Part shown: positions 20,562 through 36,157 of the stretch, piece by piece | Layout of the letters: each line of letters begins with the position of its first letter | How positions within the stretch are numbered: position 1 is the stretch's first letter | Source of the DNA: Sphingobium wenxiniae | Lineage (GTDB): Bacteria > Pseudomonadota > Alphaproteobacteria > Sphingomonadales > Sphingomonadaceae | DNA: 64,000 nt | Direction of reading: 5' to 3' | Assembly: GCF_007830065.1 (NCBI RefSeq) | Contig: NZ_VLKK01000015.1 | Span: forward strand, 1-64,000 | Made by a program: the position numbers and the translations under genes | The notes under the pieces: generated by a model | The model's database searches: none | Seen by the model: only the letters and a program-made list of their open reading frames with translations | Told to the model about the DNA's origin: nothing

Positions 20562-20699
20562 GCGCGTTCTCCTCGCGTTCACGGGGGGGTGGGCCGGGTG
20601 CCGGAAAGTCCTAGCCGATACACGTGAGCAGCATCATGGTTCCGGTGCGGCCAACACATGTTATAAACTTCGACGCCGGGGGAAACGTGCCGAGGGTCG

Positions 20700-21558: not shown

Positions 21559-22134
21559 TCATCGGGAAGGAGGATCGTCCTTATTGGTTTCCAGCGCGTC
21601 CAGCACGGCCTCGGGCGCGACGTCGCGCCCCAGTTCCTCCAACTCGGGATCGGACGCTTCGGGGATGCCCAGATGTGCGGCGATCGACGCGGTCAGGCGA
21701 ACCAGCCGCGTCACCTCATGCTCGGCCAGCAGACCGATCTGGAGATCCAGCGCCGCGCGTCCCTCCGCCATCGCGACCGCGCGGTTCTGGCTGATCAGAA
21801 CGAAGGTCGACAGGAAGATCGCTTCGACCGAAGCCCAGGTCGCCAGGATCACGAAGGTCGGATCGAACCGGGGGACGCCGGGAACGAAACCCAGATTGAC
21901 CAGAATCCACGCCCCGAACAGGGCGAGATGCAGATATACGAAGGGCAGGCTGCCGGTGAAGCGGGTGATCGCGTTCGCGATCCGCGCCTCCCGGCTCGCC
22001 TCGCCCTCTTCCCGCCGCTGCCGTTCGCGCAGGGCGTATATGTTGCGTTCCAGCGCCGGGGCCATGCCGGACGGACCGGGCGGCGGGACGGTGAGCTGTT
22101 CCCGCTTGCCGTCGTCTTCAGCGGAACGGGGCAT
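21559..22134 (-). CDS. DUF1003 membrane protein
   Basis: 191 residues. A charged N-terminal region (ALRERQRREEGEASREARIA) is followed by two membrane spans (SLPFVYLHLALFGAWILVN and FVILATWASVEAIFLSTFVLI) and the family motif SQNRAVAMAEGRAALDLQIGLLAEHEVT. The family has no established function; it is often found near stress genes. The gene converges on the Crp/Fnr gene with 7 bp between stops. Confidence 0.82.
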   Translation of the reverse strand: MPRSAEDDGKREQLTVPPPGPSGMAPALERNIYALRERQRREEGEASREARIANAITRFTGSLPFVYLHLALFGAWILVNLGFVPGVPRFDPTFVILATWASVEAIFLSTFVLISQNRAVAMAEGRAALDLQIGLLAEHEVTRLVRLTASIAAHLGIPEASDPELEELGRDVAPEAVLDALETNKDDPPSR

Positions 22135-22154: not shown

Positions 22155-23198
22155 CTATTCCGCAGCCAACGGGGTGCGGAGCGGCGAGGAAAGGAGGAGG
22201 CCCGCGCGTGCGCCGCCATGTTCGGCATGGCGGGCGCAGATTTCCTCGGCGAAGAAGTCGCAGGTGACGCGCAACCCCTCGTCGAGCAGGATGCGCGGTT
22301 CCCAGTCCAGCAATGTCCGGGCGCGCCGGATGTCCGGCCTGCGGCGGCGCGGATCGTCCACGGGGAGGGGCCGATGGATTACCGCCGATGTCGTTCCGGT
22401 TTCAGCGACGATCCGCTCCACCAGTTCGAGAATCGTATATTCCTCGGGATTGCCCAGGTTGACGGGCTTGGAGTCGGGCATGTCGACCTCCATCAGCCGG
22501 ATGAGGCCGTCCACCATGTCGGACACGAAGCAGAAGCTGCGGGTCTGCGATCCGTCGCCATAGATCGTGATGTCCTCGCCCGACAGCGCCTGGCAGAGAA
22601 GGTTGGAAATCACGCGGCCGTCATCCGGATGCATGTTGGGGCCGTAGGTGTTGAAGATGCGCGCCACCCTCACCTCCGCGCGCTCCAGCCGGGCAAAGTC
22701 GAACGCGATCGCTTCGGCGGCGCGCTTTCCCTCGTCATAACAGGCGCGCGGGCCGGTGCAGTTGACCCAGCCGCGATAATCCTCCCTTTGCGGGTGCGTC
22801 TCGGGATCGCCATAGACCTCGCTGGTCGATGTCAGCAGGAAACGGGCGCCGTTCTGTTCGGCCAGCCGCAGCAGCCGGTCGGTTCCGACCACGTTGGTCA
22901 ACATGGTATGTTCCGGATCGACCTGATATTGCGGCGGCGATGCCGCGCAGGCGAGATTGTAGATGCGGCTGATATCCCGTCGCCGGGTCACGGCGTCCGG
23001 CAACGGGTCGACGATGTCGGCGCGAAAGAAGGTAAAGGCGCGCTCGCTCTCCAGCCGTTCCAGATTGATCGCGCGCGACGTCTGGAGATTGTCCATGCAG
23101 ATCACCTCGAATCCCTTGTCGAGCAAGGCCCGGCACAGATGCGATCCGATAAACCCCGCTCCCCCGGCAACAAGCGCCACATCCTGTCTGTCCTTCAT
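22155..23198 (-). CDS. uxs: UDP-glucuronate decarboxylase (UDP-xylose synthase)
   Basis: 347 residues from MKDRQDVALVAGGAGFIGSH, with AGAAGGA-like spacing upstream (GAAGGAAAAG). Extended SDR with the glycine-rich NAD motif GGAGFIGSH. It has the decarboxylase-type signatures NLACAASPPQYQ, LLTSTSEVYGDPETHPQ, GPRACYDEGKRAAE (catalytic YxxxK as Y-DEGK) and RIFNTYGPNMHPDDGRV. It makes UDP-xylose from UDP-glucuronate in the cytosol. It is the last gene of the leftward glycosyl operon and gives the best clue to one donor sugar of the product. Confidence 0.88.
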   Translation of the reverse strand: MKDRQDVALVAGGAGFIGSHLCRALLDKGFEVICMDNLQTSRAINLERLESERAFTFFRADIVDPLPDAVTRRRDISRIYNLACAASPPQYQVDPEHTMLTNVVGTDRLLRLAEQNGARFLLTSTSEVYGDPETHPQREDYRGWVNCTGPRACYDEGKRAAEAIAFDFARLERAEVRVARIFNTYGPNMHPDDGRVISNLLCQALSGEDITIYGDGSQTRSFCFVSDMVDGLIRLMEVDMPDSKPVNLGNPEEYTILELVERIVAETGTTSAVIHRPLPVDDPRRRRPDIRRARTLLDWEPRILLDEGLRVTCDFFAEEICARHAEHGGARAGLLLSSPLRTPLAAE

Positions 23199-23226
23199 CG
23201 GTCTTTTCCTTCTCGCGGGGTGTGGT

Positions 23227-24306
23227 TCATTCCGCAGCGGCAATCCTGTCCTGCGTCCGCATCGCCGCGGCTTCGTTAAGATGCGCCTCCAGTTGTGCGG
23301 CGCGGGTGGCCGCGCTGTGCTCGGCATGGATGCGCGCCTGTGCGGCGTCGCCGATGCGCGCCCGGTCTTCGTGCAGCCACAGGATGATCTGCTCGGGCTT
23401 GTCGGCGAACAGGATTTCCCGGTTCGGCGCGAGCAGCGCATCGAGGCCCGGCCATATGTCGGAGATGATCGGCGTGCCGCACGCGGCCGCCTCGAACAGC
23501 CGCACCGAGGGCGACCAGCCGGCTTCGATCATGTCGGCGCGCGTGACATTGAGCGTATAGCGGGAAGCCGAATAGAAGGCGGGATGATCTTTGGGCGGCA
23601 GATGATCGATGCGCTCCACATTGGCCGGCCAGTCGATGTCTTCGGGATATTGCGGCCCGGCCACGACGAAGCGTTTGCCGGGCAGCAGGCGCGCCGGCTC
23701 GATCAGCAGGCGTTCCAGGGTCGGCTGCCGGTCCGCGCTGTAGGTGCCGAGATAGGAAAGGTCCCAGCGCTTGGGCACATCCGCCGGGCGATACATGTCC
23801 GTGTCGACCGAGCAGTAGAGCGCACGGGCCAATGGCGAGCCGTAACGATCCTCCAGCAGGGTGAGCGTGGGGCCGCCGGTGAAGGAGCAATAGAGGTCGT
23901 AGCCAGCGATCAGCTCCGCCGACAGATAATCGCAATGTCCTGCCCTGAGCGCTGCCAGCGTTACCGGCGTGTCGATGTCGTAGAAGGCCGTGACCGACCG
24001 GGCATGGCGCTGCACATATTGGCCGACGGCAACACCATCGGGCACATAGGAGCCGACGATGACGGCATCGGCCGACGCGATCTCGCCTCGCCAGTCTTCC
24101 AGCGCCGGCAGATCGGCGTAGAAATCGAGCCGGCAATAGTCAGGCGCCTCGAGATCGCGTTGGCTGGCATACCAGGGGACGTTCCTCTCCAGAAAGAGGA
24201 TGTCGTGCCCTCTCGCCGCAAAGGCCGACAGCAGCGCGCGATAGGTTGTAGCGTGGCCGTTGCCCCAGGACGAGGAGAGACTGAGGCCGAGAACGACGAG
24301 TTTCAT
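23227..24306 (-). CDS. CgeB-like glycosyltransferase 1
   Basis: 359 residues, cytosolic, GT-B-like. The N-terminus MKLVVLGLSLSSSWGNGHATTYRALL and the C-terminal half with AGWSPSVRLFEAAACGTPIISDIWPGLDALL and EILFADKPEQI match the CgeB / Glyco_trans_1_2 pattern, in which the EAAACGTP acidic motif contacts the nucleotide sugar. It is one of three tandem paralogues (23227, 24303, 25406) with 4-bp overlaps, suggesting successive sugar additions. The donor and acceptor are unknown. Confidence 0.8.
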   Translation of the reverse strand: MKLVVLGLSLSSSWGNGHATTYRALLSAFAARGHDILFLERNVPWYASQRDLEAPDYCRLDFYADLPALEDWRGEIASADAVIVGSYVPDGVAVGQYVQRHARSVTAFYDIDTPVTLAALRAGHCDYLSAELIAGYDLYCSFTGGPTLTLLEDRYGSPLARALYCSVDTDMYRPADVPKRWDLSYLGTYSADRQPTLERLLIEPARLLPGKRFVVAGPQYPEDIDWPANVERIDHLPPKDHPAFYSASRYTLNVTRADMIEAGWSPSVRLFEAAACGTPIISDIWPGLDALLAPNREILFADKPEQIILWLHEDRARIGDAAQARIHAEHSAATRAAQLEAHLNEAAAMRTQDRIAAAE

Positions 24307-25409
24307 GCGCCCTCCATCTGATGCTGCCGGTTCGCGGTCCGGCCCATATGCTCGCGCAGGATCGCGTCGACCTGCGCGCCGCGTAGCGCGTAGCTATGTT
24401 CGGCCCTGACCCGGGCGAGCGCGGCGCGGCCGATGGCCCGCGCCCGTTCGGGGGTGAGCGTGGCGAGATGATCCGCCACATCTTGACCATCGCGCGCGAC
24501 CAGCACTTCCTCGCCCGGCTGCAGGAACATCTCGATCCCTTCCCAGGCGTCGGTAATGAGGCAGGCGCCTGCGCCGGCCGCCTCGAAAACCCGCGTGGCC
24601 GGCGAAAAGCCGATATGCGCCATGCTGTCGCGCGCGACGTTCAGCACGGCGAGCGGCGTGCAGTTGAAGGCATTATGCTCGGCCGTGTAGACATGGCCCC
24701 GGTGGCGCACATTGGCCGGCATCGCCTTCGTGTCCCAGCCATTGCCGCCGATCAGGAAGGACCGCGTCGGCAGCAAGGCGGCCGGTTTCAGGAAGAATTC
24801 CTCCACGCGGGCCTCCCGGTCGGGCAGGCGGTTGCCCAGGAAGGCGAGATCGGCCGCGAAGCGCTGATCCGGCGGAACCGGAAAATGGCTCGTCGGATCA
24901 AGCGCATTATAGACCGGAATGCAGTCCCGCGCGCCCATGGCGCGATAGGCGTTCACGACCGGATCGCCGCCGCCATAGGTCAGGACAAGGTCAAGGTTCG
25001 GGAGCGCGCGGCGGACCGCATGGTCCGGCACGGCCCGCATGTCGTCCAGGGTGGCGGCCGCGTCGACGTCCCAGAATATGCGCAGGGCCTCCGGCCGGGC
25101 GCGCCGCATGACGCCGTCCAGCAGCTCATCGTCGAATATGCCGACGCCGCTGGCCTTGACCACCACGTCGGCCTCCGCCGCCGCGTCCATGACGCCGACC
25201 AGCGCGTCGGCCGTCGCTGGATAGACGCGGACGCGCGCCCAATCGGGCGGGTCCATGTCGCGATGCTGCTGGCGATCGAAGGCATCGGGTTCATGGAAGA
25301 CGACCTCATGCCCGCGATCCGCCAGTTCGCGCAGGATGCCCCGATAATAGGTTGCGGCGCCGTTCCAGTAGGACGACAGCAGGCTTGAGCCGTAAAAGGC
25401 GATCTTCAT
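24303..25409 (-). CDS. CgeB-like glycosyltransferase 2
   Basis: 368 residues. It begins MKIAFYGSSLLSSYWNGAATYYRGIL, aligning well with its two neighbours, and has the C-terminal nucleotide-sugar motif GFSPATRVFEAAGAGACLITDAW followed by GEEVLVARDGQDVADHL. No signal or membrane segment is present. Stop and start codons overlap by 4 bp with the genes on both sides. Specificity cannot be predicted. Confidence 0.8.
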   Translation of the reverse strand: MKIAFYGSSLLSSYWNGAATYYRGILRELADRGHEVVFHEPDAFDRQQHRDMDPPDWARVRVYPATADALVGVMDAAAEADVVVKASGVGIFDDELLDGVMRRARPEALRIFWDVDAAATLDDMRAVPDHAVRRALPNLDLVLTYGGGDPVVNAYRAMGARDCIPVYNALDPTSHFPVPPDQRFAADLAFLGNRLPDREARVEEFFLKPAALLPTRSFLIGGNGWDTKAMPANVRHRGHVYTAEHNAFNCTPLAVLNVARDSMAHIGFSPATRVFEAAGAGACLITDAWEGIEMFLQPGEEVLVARDGQDVADHLATLTPERARAIGRAALARVRAEHSYALRGAQVDAILREHMGRTANRQHQMEGA

Positions 25410-26527
25410 GCGATGCTCCCTGCAAGCTGAGGCCGGATCGACGGCTGCAATGGATCGACCACGGCCAGAAGTTCCCGCGCGCGGTGGGCGCAGCTGTGCC
25501 GTTCCCGCACCGTTTCCAGTCCGCTCCGCGCCAGCGCCGCGCGCAGGCCGGGATCGGAGGCGACCGCGCGCAGCCGGCGCGTCATCTCCGCGCCGTCCTT
25601 TGCGAACAGGAAATCCTCACCGGGCCGGAAAAGGCCTTCCGCGTCGCTCCACGGCGCGGACAGAAGCGGGATGCCGCATGCCAGCGCCTCGAACACCCTG
25701 ATGGTCGGGATGCCCGGGAGGAGCCGGGTATAATAGCGCCGGGGCACATGGACGGTGGCGGCGTGCCGCGCGAAGATGTCCGGCGCCGCTGCATTGGGCG
25801 CCCAGCCGTGATAACGCGCACCGTAGCGGCCGAGTATTCCCAGCGCCTCCCCGGGATAGCGCACGCCATGGATGTCGAGCGGCAAGCCGGCCGCGCAGGC
25901 GGGCCGGAACAGATATTCTTCCAGTTCCGTCGTGCGTTCGCCGTCGCCCCAATTGCCGATCCAGACGAGACCGTTCCGCTCGCTCTCCCGCGCCGGGGGG
26001 TGGAAATGGCGGATGTCCGCCGCTTCATGCCAGGTCCAGACCCGCTCGCCCCAGCCCCATTGGCGATAGACCTCGGACAGCGCCTCGCCAAAGGCGAGTA
26101 TTCCGTCGAAGCCGTCAAGGTCGCAGGCGCGGATCGCGTCGGGGTCCGAGACGGCCCGGTGATGGGTGTCGTGGAACAGCAGCGTGAATGTGCCGTTCCT
26201 CGCGCGCACCCGGCCGATCCGCGCGACAAGGGCCGGTTCGTTCCATTCGTGGACGATCACCAGATCGGCACCGTCCAGCAGCATATCGACGTCCGCGCCG
26301 GGGCGATAGCTGTGGGCGCGCAGATCGGGATAGGCGGCGCGAAAGGCGGTCAGGCCCCCCTCGCCATGGTCGGCGAGGAGATTCGACAGGCTCCAGTTGC
26401 CCTCCTGTTCCAGCGCCACGACATCGTGGCCGAGCGCCGCCAGTTCGCGCAGGACGCCGCGCAGGAAGTGCGCATTGCCGTGGTTCCAGCAGGAAAGCAG
26501 CGAATGGGTGAAATAGACGATCTTCAT
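25406..26527 (-). CDS. CgeB-like glycosyltransferase 3
   Basis: 373 residues from MKIVYFTHSLLSCWNHGNAH, whose ATG overlaps the stop of the GT4 gene upstream (ATGA); the open frame beyond it is spurious. The C-terminal motif is LPGIPTIRVFEALACGIPLLSAPW, then GEDFLFAKDGAEMTRRL. The N-terminus WNHGNAHFLRGVLRELAALGHDV is close to the other two paralogues, and the set looks like duplicated and diverged copies of one gene. Confidence 0.8.
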   Translation of the reverse strand: MKIVYFTHSLLSCWNHGNAHFLRGVLRELAALGHDVVALEQEGNWSLSNLLADHGEGGLTAFRAAYPDLRAHSYRPGADVDMLLDGADLVIVHEWNEPALVARIGRVRARNGTFTLLFHDTHHRAVSDPDAIRACDLDGFDGILAFGEALSEVYRQWGWGERVWTWHEAADIRHFHPPARESERNGLVWIGNWGDGERTTELEEYLFRPACAAGLPLDIHGVRYPGEALGILGRYGARYHGWAPNAAAPDIFARHAATVHVPRRYYTRLLPGIPTIRVFEALACGIPLLSAPWSDAEGLFRPGEDFLFAKDGAEMTRRLRAVASDPGLRAALARSGLETVRERHSCAHRARELLAVVDPLQPSIRPQLAGSIA

Positions 26528-27606
26528 GCCGCCGCCCTGCTCTGGACCTGATCGTAGAGAGCGGCCATCCGGCCGGCCATGGCGGCGGGCGTGTAGCGTT
26601 GCGCGCGTTCCCGTGCGCGTCGGCCCGCTTCGGCGCGCGCCGCCCTGTCCTCGATCAACCCCTCGATCGCGCGGGCAAAGGCGCGGGGATCGCGCGGGTC
26701 CACGAACAGCGCAGCGCCGTTCCACAGTTCGCGGAAGGTCGGGATGTCGGACAGGATCAGGGGACAGCCCGCAATGGCGGCTTCGAGGACGGCAAGGCCG
26801 AAGGGTTCGTAGAGCGCGGCCGAGACGAAGATCGGCCGCGCGCCCAGATGGCGCGCCAGCGCCGCTTCATCGAGCACGCCCAGCAGGTGGAGGGTCCCGA
26901 ATGCGACGCTCTCGCCGTGCGGAGAACGGGTCGGCCCCGCGGCCTTGAACGGCACGCTGAGGTGACTCGCCGCCTCGTCGAGCACATGGACATTCTTGCC
27001 TTCGTCCCACAGGCGCCCGGCCGTGAAGATGCAGTCCTGCGCGGCCTGGGGCTGCACCGGCAGGGTCCGGCCGTTGTGGACCGGCACGGGCGCGACGCCA
27101 TATTGCCGTTGGGCGGCCGCGGCGAAGGCCATGCTGGGCGCGATGGACAGCGTCGCCTGCCGGAGGCCCTTCTCCACCAGCGCCGTGCGCCAGGCGAAAT
27201 CCTGCGGCGGCGGGCCGCCGCGCACCGCCGACCACCAGGTCGCCACGCAGCTGTGCAGCACGGCGACGACAGGGCATGGATAGCGTCCCGCGCCGGCCAG
27301 GGCGGGGCTGTGCAACTGCACGATGTCCGCGCGCAGATCGCCGGCCATTTCGGCCAGCCGGCGTTCGGCGCCGATCATCCGGTCCGGCTCGTCGGCGAGC
27401 CATTCGAGGTCAAGGCCGGTTTGCATCAGGCGCAGGTTCGCAATGGCGGCGGTGCTCGCCCTTTGCGCCTCGTCCAGCGCCGGGCCGAGCACGGCAAGCG
27501 TCACCTCATAGCCCAAGGGCAGCAGCGCGGCCGCCAGGCCCGTGGAATATTGCCACACGCCGCCGAGCGCGTCGGCGGTGAGCAGGATATGGCGCGCGCG
27601 GGTCAA
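26524..27606 (-). CDS. Glycosyltransferase family 4
   Basis: 360 residues from a TTG at 27606 whose last bases overlap the upstream stop (TTGA), matching the 4-bp overlaps of the rest of the operon. GT-B fold: the N-terminal half has DALGGVWQYSTGLAAALLPLG, and the C-terminal half has FTAGRLWDEGKN and the EX7E-like VSAALYEPFGLAVLEAAIAGCPLI, typical of retaining GT4 enzymes. In mycothiol synthesis a GT4 enzyme glycosylates inositol phosphate. A similar role here is only a hypothesis, prompted by the inositol-phosphate synthase gene across the divergent promoter. Confidence 0.85.
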   Translation of the reverse strand: MTRARHILLTADALGGVWQYSTGLAAALLPLGYEVTLAVLGPALDEAQRASTAAIANLRLMQTGLDLEWLADEPDRMIGAERRLAEMAGDLRADIVQLHSPALAGAGRYPCPVVAVLHSCVATWWSAVRGGPPPQDFAWRTALVEKGLRQATLSIAPSMAFAAAAQRQYGVAPVPVHNGRTLPVQPQAAQDCIFTAGRLWDEGKNVHVLDEAASHLSVPFKAAGPTRSPHGESVAFGTLHLLGVLDEAALARHLGARPIFVSAALYEPFGLAVLEAAIAGCPLILSDIPTFRELWNGAALFVDPRDPRAFARAIEGLIEDRAARAEAGRRARERAQRYTPAAMAGRMAALYDQVQSRAAA

Positions 27607-28685
27607 AGCGCCTTCTCCATCCGCAAGGATGCGCCTGCCGTCACCGGCCCGTTTTGCCGCTCCCGGACAAGCCAATCGGCGAGATCGGCCACGCCCTGCC
27701 GCCAGGGTTTGCGCGGCCCGGGATTTATCGCTTGCGTCAGGGCGCGGGTGTCGGCGACGAAATAGCGCTGGTCGCCCGCGCGCCAGTCCGACATTTCGAT
27801 ATCGAGGCGACGGTCGAGGCAATCCCCGATATGGTCGAGGATCCGGCGCAGGCTGACCGCATTGTCCGCGCCGCCGCCCAGGTTGAAGGCGCGCCCGCGC
27901 ACATGGTCGATGTTGCGCCAGAGGCCGAGATAGGCGTCCACGGCGTCGCCCACGTCCAATATGTCGCGCACCTGGCATCCGTCGCCGTAAAGCGTGATGG
28001 TCCGTCCCTCGATCGCGCTGATGAGGAAATGCGCGACCCAGCCCTGATCCTCCGTTCCCATCTGCCGTTGGCCGTAGATGCAGCTCATCCGCAGGACGGC
28101 GGTGGGCACGCCGAAGCTGCGGCCATAGTCCAGCACATATTGGTCGGCCGCGCCCTTCGAGCAGCCATAAGGCGTGTGGAAATCGAGCGGCCGGCTCTCG
28201 TCGATGCCATGGGCGCGCAACGCGGCGTCGGCGGGCTGATAAGCGTTGCCGGCAAGCTCGAACTCCAGATCCTCCAGTCCGCCATAGACCTTGTTGGTGG
28301 ACGCGAAGATCACGGGCGGCGCAGCGGCGCAGCGGCGGGCGCTTTCCAGCAGCGTGAAGGTGCCGAGCGCATTGACCTGGAAATCCCGGCGCGGGTCCGC
28401 GAGACTGGTGGTCACGGCCACCTGCGCGGCCATATGGAACACCGCCTTGGCGCGCGCGACCATTCGGTCGAGCATCGCATCGTCGCGGATATCGGCGATG
28501 ACGGGCGCGATCCGCGCGCCGTGCCGCTGCTCCAGCCAGAGCAGGTTGCGTTCCACGCCGGGTCGGGCCAGGGAATCATAGATGATGACCTGATGCCCTT
28601 CGCCTGCGAGCCGGTCGGCAATGTTGCAGCCGATGAAACCCGCGCCGCCGGTGACGAGGACGGGTCGCGGATCGGGGCGGCTCAT
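27603..28685 (-). CDS. NAD-dependent epimerase, CDP-paratose/tyvelose 2-epimerase-like
   Basis: 360 residues, extended SDR: GGAGFIGCNIADRL for NAD, FHMAAQVAVTTS, STNKVYGGLEDLE, TPYGCSKGAADQYVLDYGR (Y-GCSK) and QMGTEDQGWVAHF followed by LYGDGCQVRDILDVGDAVDA. The last block is characteristic of the CDP-paratose 2-epimerase group, which inverts C2 of a nucleotide sugar. The true substrate may be different (UDP- or dTDP-linked). It overlaps both neighbours by 4 bp. Confidence 0.82.
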   Translation of the reverse strand: MSRPDPRPVLVTGGAGFIGCNIADRLAGEGHQVIIYDSLARPGVERNLLWLEQRHGARIAPVIADIRDDAMLDRMVARAKAVFHMAAQVAVTTSLADPRRDFQVNALGTFTLLESARRCAAAPPVIFASTNKVYGGLEDLEFELAGNAYQPADAALRAHGIDESRPLDFHTPYGCSKGAADQYVLDYGRSFGVPTAVLRMSCIYGQRQMGTEDQGWVAHFLISAIEGRTITLYGDGCQVRDILDVGDAVDAYLGLWRNIDHVRGRAFNLGGGADNAVSLRRILDHIGDCLDRRLDIEMSDWRAGDQRYFVADTRALTQAINPGPRKPWRQGVADLADWLVRERQNGPVTAGASLRMEKAL

Positions 28686-29794
28686 GCGACCAGTCCCCGC
28701 GCTTCCAGTTCCGCTCGCGCCTCCGCCACGCGGTCGTCGGCGGTCTGCCGCGCGACCCATTCCGCCAGCTCCGCCAATCCCTGCTCGAAATCCTGCCGCG
28801 CATGGAACCCGAGCGTTTCGGCCGCCAGCGTCGTGTCGCAGAAGCAGTGGCGGATGTCGCCGGTCCGTGCCTTGCCGACGATCTCCGGCTCGGCATCGTT
28901 CTTCCCCATCGCGGCGGCGAGGGCCTGCGCCACTTCGGTCACGGAGCGGTCGCGGCCCGACCCTATGTTGAATGTGCCGCCCGCCGCCTGCGGCAGTTCG
29001 AGCGCATCGGCGAAGGCGCGGCCGACGTCGCTTACGTGCACGAAGTCGCGCCGCTGGCCGCCATCCTCGAAGATCATCGGCTTCTGCCCGTTCAGCAGCC
29101 GGGACGCGAAGATCGCGAGCACGCCCGTATAGGGATTGGACAGCGCCTGGCCCGGCCCATAGACGTTGAAGAGCCGCAGGCAGACGCCCTCCATGCCATA
29201 GGGCGCGGTCATGATATGGGTCGTGCGTTCCTGCACATATTTGTTGAGCGCATAGATCGACGCGAGATGGGGCCGCTTCCATTCGGGGGTCGCGACCGGC
29301 GCGAGCGGCCGGCCAAGGCGGTCGAGCGGTTCCCAGACCTTCTGGTCGTCGCGGACCGCGCCGCGCTCGGCATCCTGCACCGGCTGGCCGTCCTGGTCGC
29401 GATAGAGCCCTTCGCCATAGATGCTCATGGAAGACGCGGTGACGACGCGGCGCACCGGATGATCGATCAGCCGTTCGAAGAGGACGGCGGTGCCCACATC
29501 GTTGACCGAGGTGTAGCGTTCCACTTCGTACATCGACTGGCCGACGCCCACTTCCGCGGCAAGGTGAATGACGCTGTCCACGCCCTGCAAGGCGCGCTCC
29601 ACCGCATTGCCGTTGCGCACGTCCGCGCGGATCAGCTCGACCTGGGGATCGAGATCCGCCGGGCGCTCCTCATTGCCGTGAACCTGCTCGATCAGGTTGT
29701 CGAGCACCCGGACCGCATGGCCGCGTGTCAGCAGCTCCCGGCAAACCTGCCGGCCGATAAAGCCTGCGCCACCGGTGACGAGTATGTTCTCCAC
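28682..29794 (-). CDS. NAD-dependent epimerase, dTDP-rhamnose 4-epimerase-like; first gene of operon
   Basis: 370 residues from a GTG at 29794 (VENILVTGGAGFIGRQ), preceded by AGAGGA six bases upstream; the longer frame has no such site. SDR motifs: VIHLAAEVGVGQSMYEV, ASSMSIYGEGLY, SIYALNKYVQER (YxxxK) and RLFNVYGPGQALSNPYTGV followed by RRDFVHVSDV. The insert between strands and the SMSIYGEGLY block resemble dTDP-L-rhamnose 4-epimerases. It heads the leftward operon of seven genes. Confidence 0.82.
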   Translation of the reverse strand: MENILVTGGAGFIGRQVCRELLTRGHAVRVLDNLIEQVHGNEERPADLDPQVELIRADVRNGNAVERALQGVDSVIHLAAEVGVGQSMYEVERYTSVNDVGTAVLFERLIDHPVRRVVTASSMSIYGEGLYRDQDGQPVQDAERGAVRDDQKVWEPLDRLGRPLAPVATPEWKRPHLASIYALNKYVQERTTHIMTAPYGMEGVCLRLFNVYGPGQALSNPYTGVLAIFASRLLNGQKPMIFEDGGQRRDFVHVSDVGRAFADALELPQAAGGTFNIGSGRDRSVTEVAQALAAAMGKNDAEPEIVGKARTGDIRHCFCDTTLAAETLGFHARQDFEQGLAELAEWVARQTADDRVAEARAELEARGLVA

Positions 29795-30085
29795 GAGCGT
29801 TCCTCTCTTGGACCTGTTGCTGGCTACCGATGCGGGCGGGATCTGGACGGCCGCAGCGGTAGTGGCAGGAGGAACATCTTCTTCTACCGCTTGGTTCCGG
29901 GTACAAAGCAACAATGAAACGCAATATAGACCCGTATAGGGTATGTTCAGATGTAATAACCTATGTTATCTTAAGATAAACCAGGTGATCTTATTTAATG
30001 TTATGTATAATTGGAAATAATAACGGCTTTATCAATTATATCAGATATGGAACTTTACCGGTTCGGGGTTGGTTGTGTGGCATCT
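29795..30085. promoter_or_regulatory. AT-rich divergent control region of the inositol-glycan operons
   Basis: The stretch from about 29920 to 30060 is strikingly AT-rich against a GC-rich background. It contains a perfect 14-bp palindrome (TTATCTTAAGATAA, 29966-29979) and an inverted pair GGAAC (29871-29875) / GTTCC (29894-29898). A further GGAAC at 30049 has GGTT 17 bases on (30071-30074), near the phosphatase start. The GGAAC elements loosely recall EcfG-type general-stress promoters. Both operons must start here. Confidence 0.5.
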
Positions 30086-30697
30086 ATGTTGATGCTTGAC
30101 TCTCCCACCCGCTTCCATCTCGTACGGCATGGCGTGCATACGGAATATGGAAAGCTGCTGAGCGGACGCGCCGGGGCCGCGCGCCTCAACGCCGTCGGCC
30201 GGAAGCAGGCGGCCCGCGTCGCGGCATGGCCGCTGCTCGGGAAGCCGTTCGCGATTCACGCCAGCCCGCGCACGCGCACGCTGGAGACGGCGTCGATCAT
30301 AGCGGCGGCCCATGCGGCGGAGGTGGACATGGTCGATGCGCTGGACGAGGTCGACTTCGGCGCATGGAACGGCCGCAGCTTCGCCGATCTGGACGGCGAC
30401 GTCCTTTGGGATGCGTGGAATCGCCGCCGCTCGGCCGCTTCCACTCCGGGCGGCGAGACGATGATGCAGGCGGTCCGGCGGATCGTCCGGCATCTGGAGG
30501 AGCATGCGCGGGCGCGTGCGGGCGGGACGGTCCTGTGCGTGACGCATTGCGACATCATCCGCGGCGCCATCGCCCATTATCTGGGTCGCAGTCTCGACGA
30601 CATATTGCGGTTCGACATCGATCCCGGATCGATCAGCACCGTTGAGATCGGCGCCGGCGGCGCGCGCGTGACCCGCATCAACGAGGTGCCCGCATGA
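30086..30697 (+). CDS. Histidine phosphatase (phosphoglycerate-mutase fold)
   Basis: 203 residues from ATG 30086; ATG 30092 is equally possible and the frame is open to 30011. Motifs: FHLVRHGVHTEYG with the phospho-accepting histidine, SPRTRTLETA, DEVDFGAWNGRSFADL with the acid glutamate, and LCVTHCDIIRGAIAH with the second histidine. CobC/SixA-like branch, a small-molecule phosphatase. As the first gene before a methyltransferase and inositol-phosphate synthase, a plausible substrate is an inositol phosphate or glycosyl-inositol phosphate. No ribosome-binding site is visible, so a short-leader transcript is possible. Confidence 0.85.
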   Translation: MLMLDSPTRFHLVRHGVHTEYGKLLSGRAGAARLNAVGRKQAARVAAWPLLGKPFAIHASPRTRTLETASIIAAAHAAEVDMVDALDEVDFGAWNGRSFADLDGDVLWDAWNRRRSAASTPGGETMMQAVRRIVRHLEEHARARAGGTVLCVTHCDIIRGAIAHYLGRSLDDILRFDIDPGSISTVEIGAGGARVTRINEVPA

Positions 30698-31518
30698 CAG
30701 CGAAGATCGTACAGAGCCATGCCGACACATTCGAGATGCGCCGCCGGATCGAGGCGCTCGGCCCCTGGTTCCACAATCTGCGCATCGGGGCCGTGCAAAC
30801 GGCGCCCGACCATTTCCTGGGGGATTATCCCGCGTTCAAGTTCGCCCGGTTCGAAGCGGCGCTCCCGGCCGATCTTTCCGGAAAGTCGGTCCTCGACATC
30901 GGGTGCAATGCCGGCTTCTATTCGATCGAGATGAAGCGCCGGGGCGCCGCGGAAGTGCTGGGCATCGATTCGGACGAACGCTACCTTGCCCAGGCGCGGT
31001 TCGCCGCCGAAGCCCTGGGTTTTGAAGGCATCGGCTTTCGCAACCTGTCGGTCTATGACGTGGGCAGGCTCGGCCGCCGTTTCGATCTCGTCATCTTCAT
31101 GGGGGTTCTCTACCATCTGCGCCATCCGCTGCTGGCGCTCGACCTGATCCGCGAACATGTCGCGGGCGATCTGATGCTGTTCCAGACGATGCAGCAGGGT
31201 TCGGCCGACGTCCTGAACGTGCCCGAAGACCACCCGTTCCATGTGCCCGGCACAAGCCGGCCGCCGGGCTTCTTCGACAATCCGGCCTATCCGCGCATGC
31301 ACTTCATCGAGAAGAAGTTCGCCCATGACTGGACCAACTGGTGGGCGCCCAACGCCGCGTGCAGCCAGGCGATGCTGCGCGCCGCCGGCTTCACGATCGA
31401 GGCGCAGCCGGAAGATGAAGTCTATCTCTGCCGCGTCGCATCCCTTCCCTATGGGGAATGGATGGGCAGCGCGGCCGTCTATCCGGCATCCGGACCGCAG
31501 GAGGAGCAGGACGCATGA
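30694..31518 (+). CDS. SAM-dependent methyltransferase, CmoB/DUF1698-like
   Basis: 274 residues, overlapping the phosphatase gene by 4 bp. SAM-binding motif VLDIGCNAGFYSIEM at about residues 64-78, acidic post-motif EVLGIDSDERYLAQA, and FMGVLYHLRHPLLALDLI, all as in the CmoB/DUF1698 group. The N-terminal helix region WFHNLRIGAVQTAPDHFLGDYP also fits. True CmoB acts on tRNA; this shorter protein in a sugar cluster more likely O-methylates the glycoside or inositol (inference). Confidence 0.83.
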   Translation: MTAKIVQSHADTFEMRRRIEALGPWFHNLRIGAVQTAPDHFLGDYPAFKFARFEAALPADLSGKSVLDIGCNAGFYSIEMKRRGAAEVLGIDSDERYLAQARFAAEALGFEGIGFRNLSVYDVGRLGRRFDLVIFMGVLYHLRHPLLALDLIREHVAGDLMLFQTMQQGSADVLNVPEDHPFHVPGTSRPPGFFDNPAYPRMHFIEKKFAHDWTNWWAPNAACSQAMLRAAGFTIEAQPEDEVYLCRVASLPYGEWMGSAAVYPASGPQEEQDA

Positions 31519-32438
31519 TCGAAGCCGCGATGATCTGGAACGAGCCGAACAACAAGTCGCATTGGGATATGGAGATCGATCCCGACTGGTCGCTCTATGC
31601 CGATATGGTGATCCGCGCGGGCAAGGCGATCCGCGATGTCAATCCCGCCGTCACGCGCATATTGGGCGGCATGTCGCCGATTGATCCGCATTGGGTGAAG
31701 CGGATGCGGGGCCATGGTGCGCTGGATGCCGTCGATGTGGTTGCGGTGCATGGCTTTCCTCTCGACTGGAATCTCTGGTCGATCCACGACTGGCCCAAGC
31801 AGATCGGCGAGATAGAAGCGGTCGTGCCGGAAAAGCCGGTCTGGGTCACGGAGGTCGGCGTCGGTTCCTTCGGGGCCGAGGAGGTGCAGGTCTTCGGCAT
31901 CGACCGCACGGCCGAACTGCTGATCGGCCGGGTGCCGCGCGTCTATTGGTACAGCCTGTTCGACCTGCCGCAGGAATGGGGCGCGACCACGCGCCACCGC
32001 GAGGCGGAGGGTTCCAGCTATTACCGCCATTTCTACATGGGCCTGATCCGCGCCGACGGCACGCCCAAGCCCGCGCTGGAGGCATATGGCAGGGTCGCCG
32101 GCGACATGGGCCTCATGCAATGGTTCCACTTCGAGGACCCGCGCCTGGACGATGCGGTCGCCTGGATGAAGCGGCTGGGCGTGCGCCATCTGCGGACGGG
32201 CCTGTCCTGGGCGGACAGCTTCCGTCCCGGCGCGATCGACTGGTTCGACCGGCAGATGGAAGCGCTCGCGGACTTCGATGTCACGGTCACTTTCTGTTTC
32301 ACGCCCGAGCATCTGGGGATCGCGCCCCATCACACCAGCGCCGTCCACGAGCCGCAGGCCTTCGCGGATTTCTGCGCCTGGATGATCGACCGCTACGCGT
32401 CCGCGCGCGCCGCGCCGCCGATCGCCCGGACCGCCTGA
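31515..32438 (+). CDS. Circularly permuted GH-A barrel protein (beta-xylosidase/GH39-like)
   Basis: 307 residues, no signal peptide, start by ATGA overlap with the methyltransferase gene. Clan GH-A active-site elements are present but in permuted order. The acid/base motif IWNEPNN (E10) is at the very N-terminus and the nucleophile motif PVWVTEVGVGSFG (E113) follows. The usual C-terminal end of such barrels, GLIRADGTPKPALEAYGRV, lies near residue 190. Only after that come the normally N-terminal strands: LGVRHLRTGLSWADSF, VTVTFCFTPEHLG and FADFCAWMIDRYA. Both catalytic glutamates are kept. It may hydrolyse or transfer a xyloside or related glycoside in the cytosol. Confidence 0.8.
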   Translation: MIEAAMIWNEPNNKSHWDMEIDPDWSLYADMVIRAGKAIRDVNPAVTRILGGMSPIDPHWVKRMRGHGALDAVDVVAVHGFPLDWNLWSIHDWPKQIGEIEAVVPEKPVWVTEVGVGSFGAEEVQVFGIDRTAELLIGRVPRVYWYSLFDLPQEWGATTRHREAEGSSYYRHFYMGLIRADGTPKPALEAYGRVAGDMGLMQWFHFEDPRLDDAVAWMKRLGVRHLRTGLSWADSFRPGAIDWFDRQMEALADFDVTVTFCFTPEHLGIAPHHTSAVHEPQAFADFCAWMIDRYASARAAPPIARTA

Positions 32439-32454
32439 ACGAGGGAGAATCCCC

Positions 32455-33576
32455 ATGCCATCACATCCCATCAACATCGGCATCGTCGGCGTCGGCAACT
32501 GCGCCAGTTCGCTGGTGCAGGGCCTGTCGCACTATCGTGCCGAAAGCAACGATCACCATGGCCTCATGCACTGGGAAATCGGCGGCTATCGTCCGTGCGA
32601 CATCCGCGTCGCGGCGGCATGGGACATCGATCGGCGCAAGGTGGGCCGCGACGTGGCCGAAGCCGTCTTCGCCAGGCCCAATTGCACGCAGGTCTTCTGC
32701 CCGGACGTGAAGCCGATCGGCGTGACGGTGGAAATGGGCCGGCGTCTCGACGGTTTTGCCGAACATATGGCCGACTATCCCGACGACCGCACCTTCCTGC
32801 CGGCCGATGCACCCGAAGCAGGGCGGGAAGGGGTGGTCGAGCGGCTGCGCGCGGCCGAGGTCGACGTGCTGCTCAACTATCTGCCCGTGGGCTCGCAGCA
32901 GGCGACCGAATTCTACGCCGAATGCGCGCTGGAGGCGGGGGTGGCCTTCGTCAACAACATCCCCGTCTTCATCGCCAGCGACCCGGTCTGGGCGGAACGC
33001 TTTGCCGCGGCGGGCGTGCCGATCATCGGCGACGACATCAAGGCGCAACTGGGCGCCACGATCGTCCACCGCGTCCTGACCGACCTCTTCGCAAAGCGCG
33101 GCGTGAAGCTGGACCGCACCTATCAGCTCAACACCGGCGGCAATACCGACTTCCTCAACATGTCGAATCGCACGCGGCTCAAGTCGAAGAAGATCTCCAA
33201 GACCGAAGCCGTGCAGTCGGTGGCCGAGACGCGGCTGGAGGACGAGAATATCCATATCGGCCCGTCCGACTATGTCGCCTGGCAGAACGACAACAAGGTC
33301 TGCTTCCTGCGCATGGAAGGGCAGTTGTTCGGCGGCGTGCCGATGAATCTGGAGCTGCGCCTGTCGGTCGAGGACAGCCCCAATTCGGCGGGCGTCGCCA
33401 TCGATATGATCCGCTGCGCCAAACTCGCCATGGATCGCGGGCTGGCCGGTCCGATCCACCCGGCGGCCGCCTATTTCTGCAAGCACCCGCCGCGCCAGAT
33501 GACCGACGATCAGGCGCATGAGGCGCTGGCAGCCTTCATCAACGGAGAAGGCGTGATGGCGGTGGCCGCGGAATGA
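32455..33576 (+). CDS. ino1: myo-Inositol-1-phosphate synthase
   Basis: 373 residues, matching the short actinobacterial type rather than the roughly 530-residue eukaryotic one. NAD motif IGIVGVGNCASSLVQG at the start, VDVLLNYLPVGSQQAT, PIIGDDIKAQLGATIVHR, the highly conserved LNTGGNTDFLNM, KSKKISKTEAVQS and EDSPNSAGVAIDMIRCAKLA. It converts glucose-6-phosphate to inositol-3-phosphate (1L-myo-inositol 1-phosphate). Such a gene is unusual in proteobacteria and, within this operon, points to an inositol-containing product. GAGGGAGA ribosome-binding site just upstream. Confidence 0.93.
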   Translation: MPSHPINIGIVGVGNCASSLVQGLSHYRAESNDHHGLMHWEIGGYRPCDIRVAAAWDIDRRKVGRDVAEAVFARPNCTQVFCPDVKPIGVTVEMGRRLDGFAEHMADYPDDRTFLPADAPEAGREGVVERLRAAEVDVLLNYLPVGSQQATEFYAECALEAGVAFVNNIPVFIASDPVWAERFAAAGVPIIGDDIKAQLGATIVHRVLTDLFAKRGVKLDRTYQLNTGGNTDFLNMSNRTRLKSKKISKTEAVQSVAETRLEDENIHIGPSDYVAWQNDNKVCFLRMEGQLFGGVPMNLELRLSVEDSPNSAGVAIDMIRCAKLAMDRGLAGPIHPAAAYFCKHPPRQMTDDQAHEALAAFINGEGVMAVAAE

Positions 33577-34583
33577 GCGGCCTCGCGGCAATCGAGCGGA
33601 ACGCTTCGGCGGATGCGCCTGTCGTCACGATGCGCGCGGCGGTCGTGACCGGCCCCGGCGCAATCCGCGTGGACCATGTGCCCCGGCCGGAACCGGGCCT
33701 CGGTCAGGTGCGCATCCGGCTTGAAGGATGCGGGGTCTGCGCGTCCAATCTCACGCCATGGGCCGGTCCCGAATGGCAGCAGTTCCCCACCGCCCCCGGC
33801 TCGCTCGGCCATGAAGGATGGGGCGTGGTCGACGCGGTCGGCGCGGGCGTGACGCAGGTGGCGCCGGGGAAGCGCGTGGCGGCGCTCTCCCATGCCAGCT
33901 ACGCCGAATATGACATTGCCGACGAAACGGCCGTGGTGCCGTTGCCGCCCGCGCTCGATGGCGCGATATTTCCGGGCGAGCCGCTGGGCTGCGCCTTCAA
34001 CATCTTCCGCCGCTCGGACATTCGGGCCGGGCAGACGGTTGCCATCATCGGCATCGGCTTCCTGGGCGCGATCCTCGCCAGGCTCGCGTCCGACGCGGGC
34101 GCGCGGGTGATCGCCATTTCGCGACGCCGCTCTTCGCTTGACCTCGCGCGCCGCTTCGGCGCCCGCGAAACGATCGCGATGGACGATCATCAGGGCATCA
34201 TCGACCAGGTGAGCGCCCTGACCGGCGGGCGCCTGTGCGAACGGGTGATCGAAGCCGTGGGCAAGCAATGGCCGCTCGACCTGGCCGGGGAACTGACGGC
34301 CGAGCGCGGCAGGCTCGTCATCGCCGGCTATCATCAGGACGGTCCCCGGCAAGTCAACATGTGGCTGTGGAACTGGCGCGGCATCGATGTCGTCAATGCG
34401 CATGAGCGGGATCCGCTGGTCTATGCGCAAGGCGTGCGGGCCGCCGTCGATGCGGTCGCCACGGGCCGCCTCGACCCCGCGCCGCTCTACACGCACGTCT
34501 ATCCGCTGGAAAAGCTGGGGGAAGCACTGGATGCGACGCGGGACAAGCCTGGCGGCTTCGTGAAAGCGGTCATAACGCTATGA
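33573..34583 (+). CDS. MDR-family dehydrogenase (zinc ADH-like)
   Basis: 336 residues, overlapping the ino1 gene by 4 bp. The catalytic-zinc region shows LEGCGVCASNLTPW and GSLGHEGWGVV; the NAD(P) fold has VAIIGIGFLGAILARLA. The four-cysteine structural zinc lobe found in classic alcohol dehydrogenases is missing. It could oxidise or reduce a ring carbon of inositol or the sugar moiety; the direct link to ino1 favours a cyclitol or sugar substrate, but this is not shown. Confidence 0.82.
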   Translation: MSGLAAIERNASADAPVVTMRAAVVTGPGAIRVDHVPRPEPGLGQVRIRLEGCGVCASNLTPWAGPEWQQFPTAPGSLGHEGWGVVDAVGAGVTQVAPGKRVAALSHASYAEYDIADETAVVPLPPALDGAIFPGEPLGCAFNIFRRSDIRAGQTVAIIGIGFLGAILARLASDAGARVIAISRRRSSLDLARRFGARETIAMDDHQGIIDQVSALTGGRLCERVIEAVGKQWPLDLAGELTAERGRLVIAGYHQDGPRQVNMWLWNWRGIDVVNAHERDPLVYAQGVRAAVDAVATGRLDPAPLYTHVYPLEKLGEALDATRDKPGGFVKAVITL

Positions 34584-35617
34584 CGCCCCTGTCCGCTCCT
34601 GCCGCCGCGGCGCCGGTTCTGTCGCTGCCGCGCATCGGCTTCCTGGGGGTCGGCTGGATCGGCCGCCATCGCATGGAAGCCATGATCGGGGCCGGAACGG
34701 TCGAGGTCGCCGCGATCGCCGACGCCTTGCCCGGCAACAGCGCGGAGGCCGCGCGCCTCGCTCCCCGGGCGGCGCGGCTGGATTCGTTCGACGCGCTGCT
34801 CGATCAGGATCTCGACGGGCTGGTCATCGCGACGCCCAGCGCCCTCCACGCGCAGCAGTCCATCCGTGCGTTGGAGCGGGGCATCCCTGTATTCTGCCAG
34901 AAGCCGCTCGGTCGGACCCTGATGGAGGTTCAGGAAGTCATCGAGGCGGCGCGCCGGGCGGATCGCCTGCTCGGCGTCGATCTTTCCTACCGCGGGACCG
35001 CCGGCATGCGCGCCATCAGGGACAGGGTCGTTGCGGGCGAACTGGGCGACGTGCACGCCGTCGATCTTGTCTTCCACAATGCCTATGGCCCGGACAAACC
35101 CTGGTTCTACGATCCCTTGCTGTCGGGCGGCGGCTGCATGATGGACCTGGGGGTGCATCTGATCGACCTGGCCTTGTGGACGCTCGGCTTCCCCGAGGTC
35201 GAAGGCATCAGCGCCGATCTGTTCAGCAAGGGCCGCCGCCTGTCCGATCGCGCGGCGCAGGTGGAGGATCACGGCCTTGCCACCATCCGGCTCGCCGGCG
35301 GCAGGCTGATTCGGATCGCCTGTTCCTGGCATCTCCATGCCGGGCAGGATGCCGTCATCGCGGCGGAATTTCATGGCGATCGGGCCGGTGCGGCGTTCCG
35401 CAACGTCGGCGGCTCCTTCTACGATTTCACTGCCGATCTGTTCCGCGGCACGACGCGCGAGACGCTGACGACGTCGGGCGATGCGTGGGGCGGGTATATG
35501 GCGGCCGCCTGGGCTGACCGGTTGGCGCGGTCCGCCGGATTCGATCCGGACTGCGAGCGGCTCGCCTGCGTCGCGGCGGTGCTCGACGGCATATACGCCG
35601 CTGCCCCGGACGGATGA
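34580..35617 (+). CDS. Gfo/Idh/MocA-family oxidoreductase
   Basis: 345 residues, 4-bp overlap with the MDR gene. Rossmann start RIGFLGVGWIGRHRMEAM, the family lysine motif as CQKPLGRT (usual EKP), and the C-terminal domain with SGGGCMMDLGVHLIDLALW carrying the conserved histidine and aspartate. Members include myo-inositol 2-dehydrogenases and sugar-3-dehydrogenases. With inositol-phosphate synthase in the same operon, a cyclitol or glycoside oxidation/epimerisation partner of the MDR enzyme is plausible. Last gene of the rightward operon. Confidence 0.85.
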   Translation: MTPLSAPAAAAPVLSLPRIGFLGVGWIGRHRMEAMIGAGTVEVAAIADALPGNSAEAARLAPRAARLDSFDALLDQDLDGLVIATPSALHAQQSIRALERGIPVFCQKPLGRTLMEVQEVIEAARRADRLLGVDLSYRGTAGMRAIRDRVVAGELGDVHAVDLVFHNAYGPDKPWFYDPLLSGGGCMMDLGVHLIDLALWTLGFPEVEGISADLFSKGRRLSDRAAQVEDHGLATIRLAGGRLIRIACSWHLHAGQDAVIAAEFHGDRAGAAFRNVGGSFYDFTADLFRGTTRETLTTSGDAWGGYMAAAWADRLARSAGFDPDCERLACVAAVLDGIYAAAPDG

Positions 35618-35689: not shown

Positions 35690-36157
35690 TCAGCGCCCCA
35701 GCAGCTTCGCCACCAGGGCCGCCGCCGCGCGCGTCACATCGTCCCATGTGACGTCGAATCCCGCCGCGTCGCCGAAATAGGGATCGGCCACATTCGTTCC
35801 CTCGCGCCCCGGCACAAGGTCCATGAGCAGCCCCAGGCGCGCCGTGCCGTCCGCCGGGCGGATGCGCCGCAGGTCGCGCAGATTTGCCCCGTCCAACGCA
35901 AAGATATGGCCGAAGCGATGGAAGTCCTCCGCCCGCACCTGCCGCCCGCGATAGCCGCTGATGTCGATCCCATGGCGCAGCGCCACGGCCTGCGCCCGCC
36001 AATCGGGCGGGGAGCCGATATGCCAGTCGCCCGTGCCCGCCGAATCCGCCTCCGCCGTCAGCCGCGCCCGCTCCGCCTCCGCCCGGAACGCGGCCTCCGC
36101 CAGCGGCGACCGGCAGATATTGCCGAGGCATACGAACAGGACGGACGGCTCGCTCAT
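35690..36157 (-). CDS. Low-molecular-weight protein-tyrosine phosphatase family
   Basis: 155 residues, normal length. P-loop LFVCLGNICRSPLAEAAF (C-X5-R) at residues 8-25 and the general-acid aspartate in VADPYFGDA. It removes phosphate from tyrosine or small molecules; in bacteria such enzymes often control exopolysaccharide kinases, though none is encoded here. It overlaps the HerA-like ATPase gene by 4 bp (ATGA). Confidence 0.9.
   Translation of the reverse strand: MSEPSVLFVCLGNICRSPLAEAAFRAEAERARLTAEADSAGTGDWHIGSPPDWRAQAVALRHGIDISGYRGRQVRAEDFHRFGHIFALDGANLRDLRRIRPADGTARLGLLMDLVPGREGTNVADPYFGDAAGFDVTWDDVTRAAAALVAKLLGR

What the first reader, a model, noticed from the sequence alone, without database searches (positions are those of the whole stretch)
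22155..35617. Divergent operons for a predicted methylated, xylose-containing inositol glycoside
Thirteen genes in two tightly overlapping divergent operons combine UDP-xylose synthase, two further nucleotide-sugar epimerases, one GT4 and three CgeB-like glycosyltransferases with a phosphatase, methyltransferase, GH-A protein, inositol-1-phosphate synthase and two oxidoreductases. Inositol-phosphate synthase plus GT4 plus phosphatase mirrors the first three steps of mycothiol synthesis, but deacetylase and cysteine ligase genes are absent. So are flippase, polymerase and priming transferase. The genes are directly seen; the product is inference: a soluble or secreted pseudo-oligosaccharide, or a head group for a lipid.
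Basis: partly seen in the sequence, partly recalled or inferred. Interest (0 to 1): 0.82.

Follow-up and report, generated by a model that had tools for sequence, protein, structure and literature searches.

The report
Stress-linked inositol-sugar gene cassette, permuted glycosidase
Thirteen genes that probably build an unknown inositol-containing sugar under the control of the bacterial general stress response; the set is conserved in many Alphaproteobacteria and includes an enzyme whose barrel fold has been circularly rearranged.

Summary
In detail: 13 intact genes (22155-35617) in two divergent operons, nine of eleven within-operon junctions being 4-base overlaps. The set is a conserved cassette of variable gene order, marked by the TIGR04290 methyltransferase. 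Inositol is tied to it: in 249 family genomes, inositol-phosphate synthase is present in 32/32 with the marker and 34/217 without. UDP-xylose synthase is confirmed by homology. (1) Operon heads carry an EcfG-type general-stress-response promoter motif (GGAAC-N17/18-GTT) in many genomes and several gene orders, while 0 of 551 upstream regions of the nine other genes do. (2) The GH-A protein is a natural circular permutant of a GH39/PslG-like barrel: rotating the sequence turns a 171-column match to a standard-order relative into a 277-column full-length match. That relative is fused to the neighbouring epimerase in two clusters that lack inositol-phosphate synthase and the phosphatase. Best reading: a cytosolic, stress-induced, inositol-bearing hetero-oligosaccharide. 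Its structure, its function and actual stress induction remain inferred. Mycothiol synthesis is rejected as a membership.

The parts
22155..23198 (-). g1, UDP-glucuronate decarboxylase (UDP-xylose synthase)-like SDR
   Evidence: 331 bits to 2b69 human UXS1, next non-UXS 145 bits
23227..24306 (-). g2, PF13524 (CgeB-like) glycosyltransferase a
   Evidence: a match in 56 of 68 full-length loci
24303..25409 (-). g3, PF13524 (CgeB-like) glycosyltransferase b
   Evidence: in 13 of 13 genomes whose full-length locus lacks it, it lies elsewhere in the genome
25406..26527 (-). g4, PF13524 (CgeB-like) glycosyltransferase c
   Evidence: 55 of 68
26524..27606 (-). g5, GT4 glycosyltransferase (first transfer proposed)
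   Evidence: profile nearest in PDB to Tll1590, PimA and MshA-type chains, 65 to 60 bits
27603..28685 (-). g6, SDR of the CDP-tyvelose 2-epimerase type
   Evidence: 271 bits to 9rl0, next kind 106 bits
28682..29794 (-). g7, SDR, NDP-sugar 4-epimerase/dehydratase-like
29873..29898 (-). EcfG-type promoter motif before g7-g1: GGAAC-N18-GTT, 78 bp before g7 (near-palindromic, also read on + at 29871-29896)
   Evidence: similar sites in relatives
30049..30074 (+). EcfG-type promoter motif before g8-g13: GGAAC-N18-GTT, 11 bp before the ATG at 30086
30086..30697 (+). g8, histidine phosphatase, nearest NCBIfam MSMEG_4193 (below cut-off)
   Evidence: directly follows ino1 in 11 of 44 loci holding both
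30694..31518 (+). g9, TIGR04290 SAM methyltransferase, marker of the cassette
   Evidence: 376.5 bits vs cut-off 300
31515..32438 (+). g10, circularly permuted GH-A (GH39/PslG-like) barrel beginning at strand 4; putative catalytic Glu10 and Glu113 invariant in 24
32455..33576 (+). g11, inositol-3-phosphate synthase (Ino1)
   Evidence: 407 bits to 1gr0, SKKISKT stretch kept; TIGR03450 444.6 bits, below its cut-off 638
33573..34583 (+). g12, zinc-dependent dehydrogenase
34580..35617 (+). g13, Gfo/Idh/MocA oxidoreductase, nearest NCBIfam inositol 2-dehydrogenase (94.6 bits, cut-off 355)

Best explanation
A cytosolic biosynthetic cassette, switched on by the alphaproteobacterial general stress response (sigma EcfG), that makes a methylated hetero-oligosaccharide carrying a myo-inositol unit. 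Proposed order: g11 turns glucose-6-phosphate into inositol phosphate; the phosphatase g8 removes the phosphate, before or after GT4 g5 attaches the first sugar; the three CgeB-like enzymes g2-g4 add further sugars, one of them xylose from g1, others from nucleotide sugars reshaped by g6 (C2-epimerase type) and g7; g9 methylates; the permuted GH39-like g10 trims or transfers a sugar; g12 and g13 oxidise or reduce a ring position of the inositol or a sugar. Shown by computation: gene content, conservation, coupling to inositol-phosphate synthase, promoter motif at operon heads, permuted barrel. Inferred: actual stress induction, every reaction and its order, the acceptor of each transferase, solubility of the product, and its role as a protectant.
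For: Of 68 full-length loci compared, 19 have all 13 genes, and g9/g10 are adjacent in 84 of 85 loci with both. In 13 of 13 genomes whose locus lacks g3, g3 is elsewhere in the genome. Ino1 co-occurrence: 32/32 vs 34/217, Fisher p 3e-22; 12/14 vs 24/384, p 4e-12; 50/50. EcfG-type motif within 150 bp upstream: g7 30/62, g8 22/68, g9 32/92, ino1 11/48, nine other genes 0/551, base shuffles 0 to 0.30 per gene; in the g7/g8 gap 36 of 55 relatives, shuffle mean 0.8, highest of 90 letter orders. Motif definitions: Sphingomonas melonis Fr1 GGAAC-N17-20-GTT (PMC6599016, passages) and Sphingopyxis granuli GGAAC-N16-CGTT (PMC7083833, passages). The own genome has two ECF sigma genes, 41% and 35% identical to the one beside a relative's cluster. 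No clear membrane segments.
Against: No expression or metabolite data. Loci are related and no correction was made, so the p values are too small. The motif is missing at many heads (g7 32 of 62, g8 46 of 68), and the split clusters L117 has none. Ino1 lies outside the cassette in many Sphingomonas; in seven such regions looked at, no motif stands just before it, and 34 family genomes without the marker have Ino1 for other purposes. g5 is as close to Tll1590 and PimA as to MshA. Two clusters (L022, L026) keep the GTs and g9 in genomes without Ino1, so the core sugar may not need inositol.
Confidence: 0.6

Rival explanations
1. The cassette glycosylates a lipid or macromolecule (envelope glycolipid head group or protein), with inositol as part of the glycan; CgeB-like enzymes act as in the Bacillus spore crust (recalled).
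For: PF13524 enzymes; the GSR regulon of Sphingopyxis includes many envelope elements (PMC7083833 passage).
Against: No membrane protein, priming transferase, flippase or exporter family among the 13. Of ten extra proteins scanned in relatives, hits were to a nucleotidyltransferase, GT4, methyltransferase, B12-radical SAM, phosphopentomutase, an F420-hydrogenase-beta-like protein and an ECF sigma factor; three had no hit. A carrier or exporter elsewhere in the genome was not looked for.
Confidence: 0.25
2. It is a low-molecular-weight thiol or mycothiol-like pathway using the first three MSH steps.
For: g11's only NCBIfam hit is mycothiol INO1 and g8's best is MSMEG_4193, both below cut-off.
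Against: No MshB or MshC over cut-off in the genome: MshB 22 bits over positions 2-34 (cut-off 224); MshC 171 bits (cut-off 485), and the MshC model rings in all 14 control genomes, over cut-off in one, as expected if it picks up cysteinyl-tRNA synthetases.
Confidence: 0.03
3. Two unrelated operons that happen to abut: an inositol operon (g8-g13) and a sugar operon (g1-g7).
For: In several Sphingomonas g9 with g10, g12 or g13 lies apart from the g1/g2-g7 run.
Against: Both halves are in the same genome in 13 of 13 split cases searched; both carry the promoter motif in many loci; in other families g11, g8, an extra CgeB-like gene, g9 and g10 follow each other in one direction.
Confidence: 0.1

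Closest known systems
NCBIfam hypothetical equivalogs TIGR04290 (meth_Rta_06860) and TIGR04295 (B12_rSAM_oligo)
   Same: g9 is over the TIGR04290 cut-off; TIGR04295 lies in the L023 cluster (709.7 bits), and similar proteins (X7) in L024 and L026
   Different: the models carry no function; no TIGR04295-type gene is among the window's 13. That curators grouped them as one system is recalled, not seen
Mycothiol biosynthesis (Ino1, MshA, phosphatase, MshB, MshC)
   Same: Ino1, a GT4 and a histidine phosphatase
   Different: no MshB/MshC over cut-off in the genome; extra GTs, epimerases, methyltransferase, glycosidase
PslG (GH39; family recalled)
   Same: rotated g10 profile aligns in one piece to PslG 25-280, E 8e-10
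   Different: g10 is circularly permuted, 307 aa, no evident export signal, encoded amid cytosolic enzymes
GH70 glucansucrases
   Same: a glycoside hydrolase with a naturally permuted catalytic domain (recalled; implied in the abstract of PMC9732880, search listing)
   Different: GH70 is related to GH13 (recalled), not to clan GH-A
General stress response regulons of Sphingomonas melonis Fr1 and Sphingopyxis granuli TFA
   Same: same promoter motif
   Different: the passages read do not name these genes; whether those strains hold the cassette was not tested

Membership tests
Mycothiol biosynthesis | MshB deacetylase in the genome | tested here: not met
   best 22.4 bits over positions 2-34, cut-off 224
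Mycothiol biosynthesis | MshC cysteine ligase in the genome | tested here: not met
   best 171 bits, cut-off 485; the model rings in all 14 controls
Mycothiol biosynthesis | Ino1 | tested here: met
   407 bits to 1gr0; below the TIGR03450 cut-off
TIGR04290 methyltransferase | score over curated cut-off | tested here: met
   376.5 vs 300
UDP-xylose synthase | closest to characterised UXS rather than other SDRs | tested here: met
   331 vs 145 bits
UDP-xylose synthase | decarboxylation of UDP-GlcA | not testable with these tools
   needs assay
Clan GH-A / GH39-like | (beta/alpha)8 barrel with two catalytic Glu, after canonical strands 4 and 7 (recalled) | tested here: met
   model pLDDT 84.7, pTM 0.86, eight strands of 3 or more residues; E10 and E113 invariant in 24. 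A prediction, not a solved structure
Clan GH-A / GH39-like | canonical strand order | tested here: not met
   WNEPNN at residue 8-9 in 85 of 85 with the assigned starts; 57 of 85 have an in-frame stop within 100 codons upstream, the other 28 show no GH motif upstream; rotation restores colinearity (vs 64, 80 vs 81)
Clan GH-A / GH39-like | close structural match to a GH39 structure | tested here: inconclusive
   Foldseek and VIA lists show mixed barrels, tied in Z
EcfG (GSR) regulon | GGAAC-N16-20-GTT before operon heads | tested here: met
EcfG (GSR) regulon | loss of expression in an ecfG mutant | not testable with these tools
   needs RNA data

The most novel reading that the evidence does not exclude
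A previously undescribed class of stress-induced compatible solute or protectant, a methylated xylosyl-inositol hetero-oligosaccharide made in the cytosol under the general stress response across several alphaproteobacterial orders, in whose pathway a natural circular permutant of a GH39-like barrel acts as a synthetic transglycosidase on the inositol-bearing intermediate; the permuted form replaced a standard-order, epimerase-fused ancestor when inositol was recruited.
Probability: 0.25. Interest if true: 0.85.

Novelty: new variant of a known kind. Interest (0 to 1): 0.66.

Why it matters
What the general stress response actually makes in Alphaproteobacteria is only partly known; a conserved orphan sugar pathway behind its promoter motif gives a testable output. 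The permuted GH-A barrel, with a standard-order relative in a sister cluster, is a clean natural experiment in barrel permutation and offers an enzyme family to characterise.

Tried and rejected

Literature, ten searches of an open-access library: TIGR04290/Rta_06860/CgeB family, 0 papers; inositol-3-phosphate synthase + general stress response + Sphingomonas + glycosyltransferase, 0; EcfG + Sphingomonas + GGAAC + regulon, 4; rhizo-twelve, a name I recalled for the cassette, 0; circular permutation + glycoside hydrolase + TIM barrel + clan GH-A, 0; circularly permuted + glycoside hydrolase + natural, 25 papers, 15 listed, listing only; listings. Passages read: PMC6599016, PMC6193724, PMC5591287 (irrelevant), PMC7083833. 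'Not in print' means no more than this.

Weak points told. In one search the window's own row came out empty through a script fault, so 36 of 55 is for relatives; four loci (L020, L023, L024, L095) were left out there for orientation or gap length; many sites in the gap are near-palindromic and count on both strands, so the counts for both directions are inflated; the 90 letter orders include the real one, and the next best (23 and 21 of 56) share GGAAC. The start codons of g10 orthologues were picked by a script nearest to the window's start, hence the extra check: 28 of 85 have an open frame of over 100 codons upstream, overlapping the methyltransferase gene, without a GH motif. The rotated profile has five sequences, the native one 24. 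In one search four of the UXS matches (G403, G406, G429, G680) contain one stop in the matched stretch. One search found only six of the twelve permuted-GH genomes, so it is not sensitive. No phylogenetic correction anywhere.
Full report
What is there. The thirteen genes are real and intact. Two divergent operons face away from a 291-bp gap; nine of eleven within-operon junctions are 4-base overlaps. Families: g1 SDR, g2-g4 PF13524 glycosyltransferases, g5 GT4, g6 and g7 SDRs, g8 histidine phosphatase, g9 TIGR04290 methyltransferase over cut-off, g10 weak glycosyl hydrolase core, g11 Ino1, g12 Zn-dehydrogenase, g13 Gfo/Idh/MocA. By solved structures g1 is nearest to UDP-glucuronate decarboxylase, 331 bits against 145 for the next kind; g6 to CDP-tyvelose 2-epimerase, 271 against 106; g7 to several 4-epimerase-like proteins; g11 to M. 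tuberculosis Ino1, 407 bits, with the SKKISKT stretch identical. No protein of the thirteen has a clear membrane segment (largest 19-residue mean hydropathy 1.92, in g12).

It is a conserved cassette. TIGR04290 occurs in 14 of 398 genomes drawn from the phylum, all in the window's class, in five families, and in 32 of 249 of the window's family. Twelve of the fourteen clusters, the window's included, carry Ino1, the phosphatase, the permuted GH and CgeB-like genes together, in several gene orders. Of 68 with a near full flank, all have g9 by construction, 19 have all thirteen genes, g10 is in 64, g8 in 52, g3 in 55, g11 in 36, g1 in 42. Thirteen of the 68 lack g3; in all thirteen genomes g3 is found elsewhere (64-78% identity), with L048, whose locus has g3, as a positive control. 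Of five such places inspected, all hold a run of g2-g7, three with g1, four with g8, and three with some of g10-g13; four have the motif in the g7/g8 gap or before g7, one (L117) does not. Relatives add a nucleotidyltransferase-like gene, a second GT4, a second methyltransferase, a fourth CgeB-like gene, a TIGR04295 B12-radical SAM, or a phosphopentomutase. The nearest named relatives are Sphingobium species, so the window is probably Sphingobium; this is inference.

Inositol is tied to it. In the same 249 family genomes Ino1 is in 66: 32 of 32 with TIGR04290 and 34 of 217 without (Fisher p 3e-22). In the phylum draw 12 of 14 against 24 of 384. Of 55 named genomes chosen, 50 were searched and 50 have Ino1. 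In genus g1 the two marker genomes have Ino1 and the three without the marker do not; in g2 the marker genome G283 has it, one markerless genome (G229) has it and four do not; in g4 G131 has both and G127 neither. The two exceptions, G265 and G315, lack Ino1 genome-wide and lack the phosphatase and the permuted GH in their fetched clusters. These tests ignore phylogeny. In many Sphingomonas Ino1 is unlinked; seven such regions inspected have Ino1 at 75-80% (five) or 60% (two) identity to g11, none with the motif just before it. A UXS homologue is in 15 of 15 cassette genomes whose fetched stretch lacked g1: in three it lies just past the edge of the stretch, in twelve elsewhere at 52-56% identity; and in 2 of 6 cassette-free relatives.

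Stress-response promoters. The EcfG motif is GGAAC-N17-20-GTT in S. melonis Fr1 (PMC6599016, passages) and GGAAC-N16-CGTT in Sphingopyxis granuli (PMC7083833, passages). The window's gap has one such site towards each operon; the whole window has 9 matches against 1.87 expected, several inside genes or counted on both strands. Across relatives a site with N17-18 lies within 150 bp upstream of g7 in 30 of 62, g8 in 22 of 68, g9 in 32 of 92 and ino1 in 11 of 48. For the nine other genes it is 0 of 551. Base shuffles give 0 to 0.30 per gene. The eleven ino1 sites end 37-57 bp before the start and all are in gene orders other than the window's. In the gap, with N17-19, GGAAC...GTT is the most frequent of 90 letter orders and is found in 36 of 55 relatives against a shuffle mean of 0.8 and maximum of 3. 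An ECF sigma gene lies near four relatives' clusters (one by family, three by similarity), and the own genome has two similar ones. Sites are missing at many heads, and nothing here shows transcription.

The permuted glycosidase. g10 opens with MIEAAMIWNEPN, the strand-4 acid/base motif of clan GH-A (recalled), and what should precede it lies at its C-terminus. With starts picked nearest to the window's, WNEPNN is at residue 8 or 9 in 85 of 85 orthologues, and an exact L/M-RTGLSW, a strand-2 motif by my reading, at 220-239 in 75 of 85. In 57 of 85 an in-frame stop within 100 codons upstream leaves no room for the missing strands; in 28 the frame is open longer but holds no GH motif. In L022 and L026 a standard-order relative is fused in one frame to the N-terminus of the g6 homologue: g10 7-185 matches its 149-324 and g10 199-296 its 43-142 in L022 (E 2e-21 and 2e-8), likewise in L026. 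Profile comparison covers 171 columns (E 2e-26) in native order and 277 columns (E 2e-36, 32% identity) once g10 is rotated. Against PDB the native profile meets PslG over 3-153 only (E 8e-7), the rotated one over 9-244 in one piece (E 8e-10). The AlphaFold2 model has eight strands, pLDDT 84.7, pTM 0.86, and its structural matches are barrels. Glu10 and Glu113 are invariant in 24. In 398 genomes a search with the standard-order form at E 1e-20 finds eight, all cassette genomes; two match end to end and six over the second half only. Standard order is taken as ancestral because known GH39 enzymes have it (recalled).

How it may work. Ino1 supplies inositol phosphate. In 11 of 44 loci with both, the phosphatase follows ino1 directly, mostly overlapping it, so it may release free inositol or act on the first glycoside. 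g5 is the candidate first transferase, but its profile is as close to Tll1590 and PimA as to MshA. g2-g4 extend the chain; g1, g6 and g7 shape the donors; g9 methylates and is adjacent to g10 in 84 of 85 loci with both. g10 may trim or transfer. g12 and g13 may edit inositol or a sugar; inositol-type dehydrogenases are among or at the top of their matches, far below cut-off. With no carrier-lipid, export or polymerase gene among the thirteen, a soluble oligosaccharide is favoured. All of this paragraph beyond the cited counts is inference.

Verdict. It is an orphan pathway, members of which NCBIfam already models without a function, with a stress-response link and a permuted enzyme that I did not find in print in the searches listed under Tried and rejected.

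Noticed in passing
18411-20582, 20799-21551, 21559-22134: Catalase HPII-like gene, a Crp/FNR-type regulator and a DUF1003 protein sit beside the cassette; katE or DUF1003 homologues are also near several relatives' clusters.
   Followed up: partly
35690-37737: Low-molecular-weight tyrosine phosphatase overlapping a HerA-like ATPase gene, then PEP carboxylase at 37722-40424.
   Followed up: no
L022:15777-17894, L026:2914-5001: Standard-order GH39-like domain fused to the N-terminus of the g6-type epimerase, in clusters without Ino1, phosphatase or permuted GH.
   Followed up: yes
L023:14773-16143: TIGR04295 B12-binding radical SAM protein inside the cassette, 709.7 bits; similar proteins also in L024 and L026.
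   Followed up: partly
L023:11270-12475: A phosphopentomutase gene directly after the permuted GH in L023, with a homologue in L024, suggesting that a pentose-1-phosphate feeds the pathway there.
   Followed up: no
L016:4007-5755: A conserved 582-aa protein without an NCBIfam hit (X1) divergent from ino1 in L016, L017, L018, L019 and L021.
   Followed up: no
L120, L125: A second type of Ino1, 60% identical to the window's, in Sphingomonas whose cassette locus lacks ino1.
   Followed up: partly
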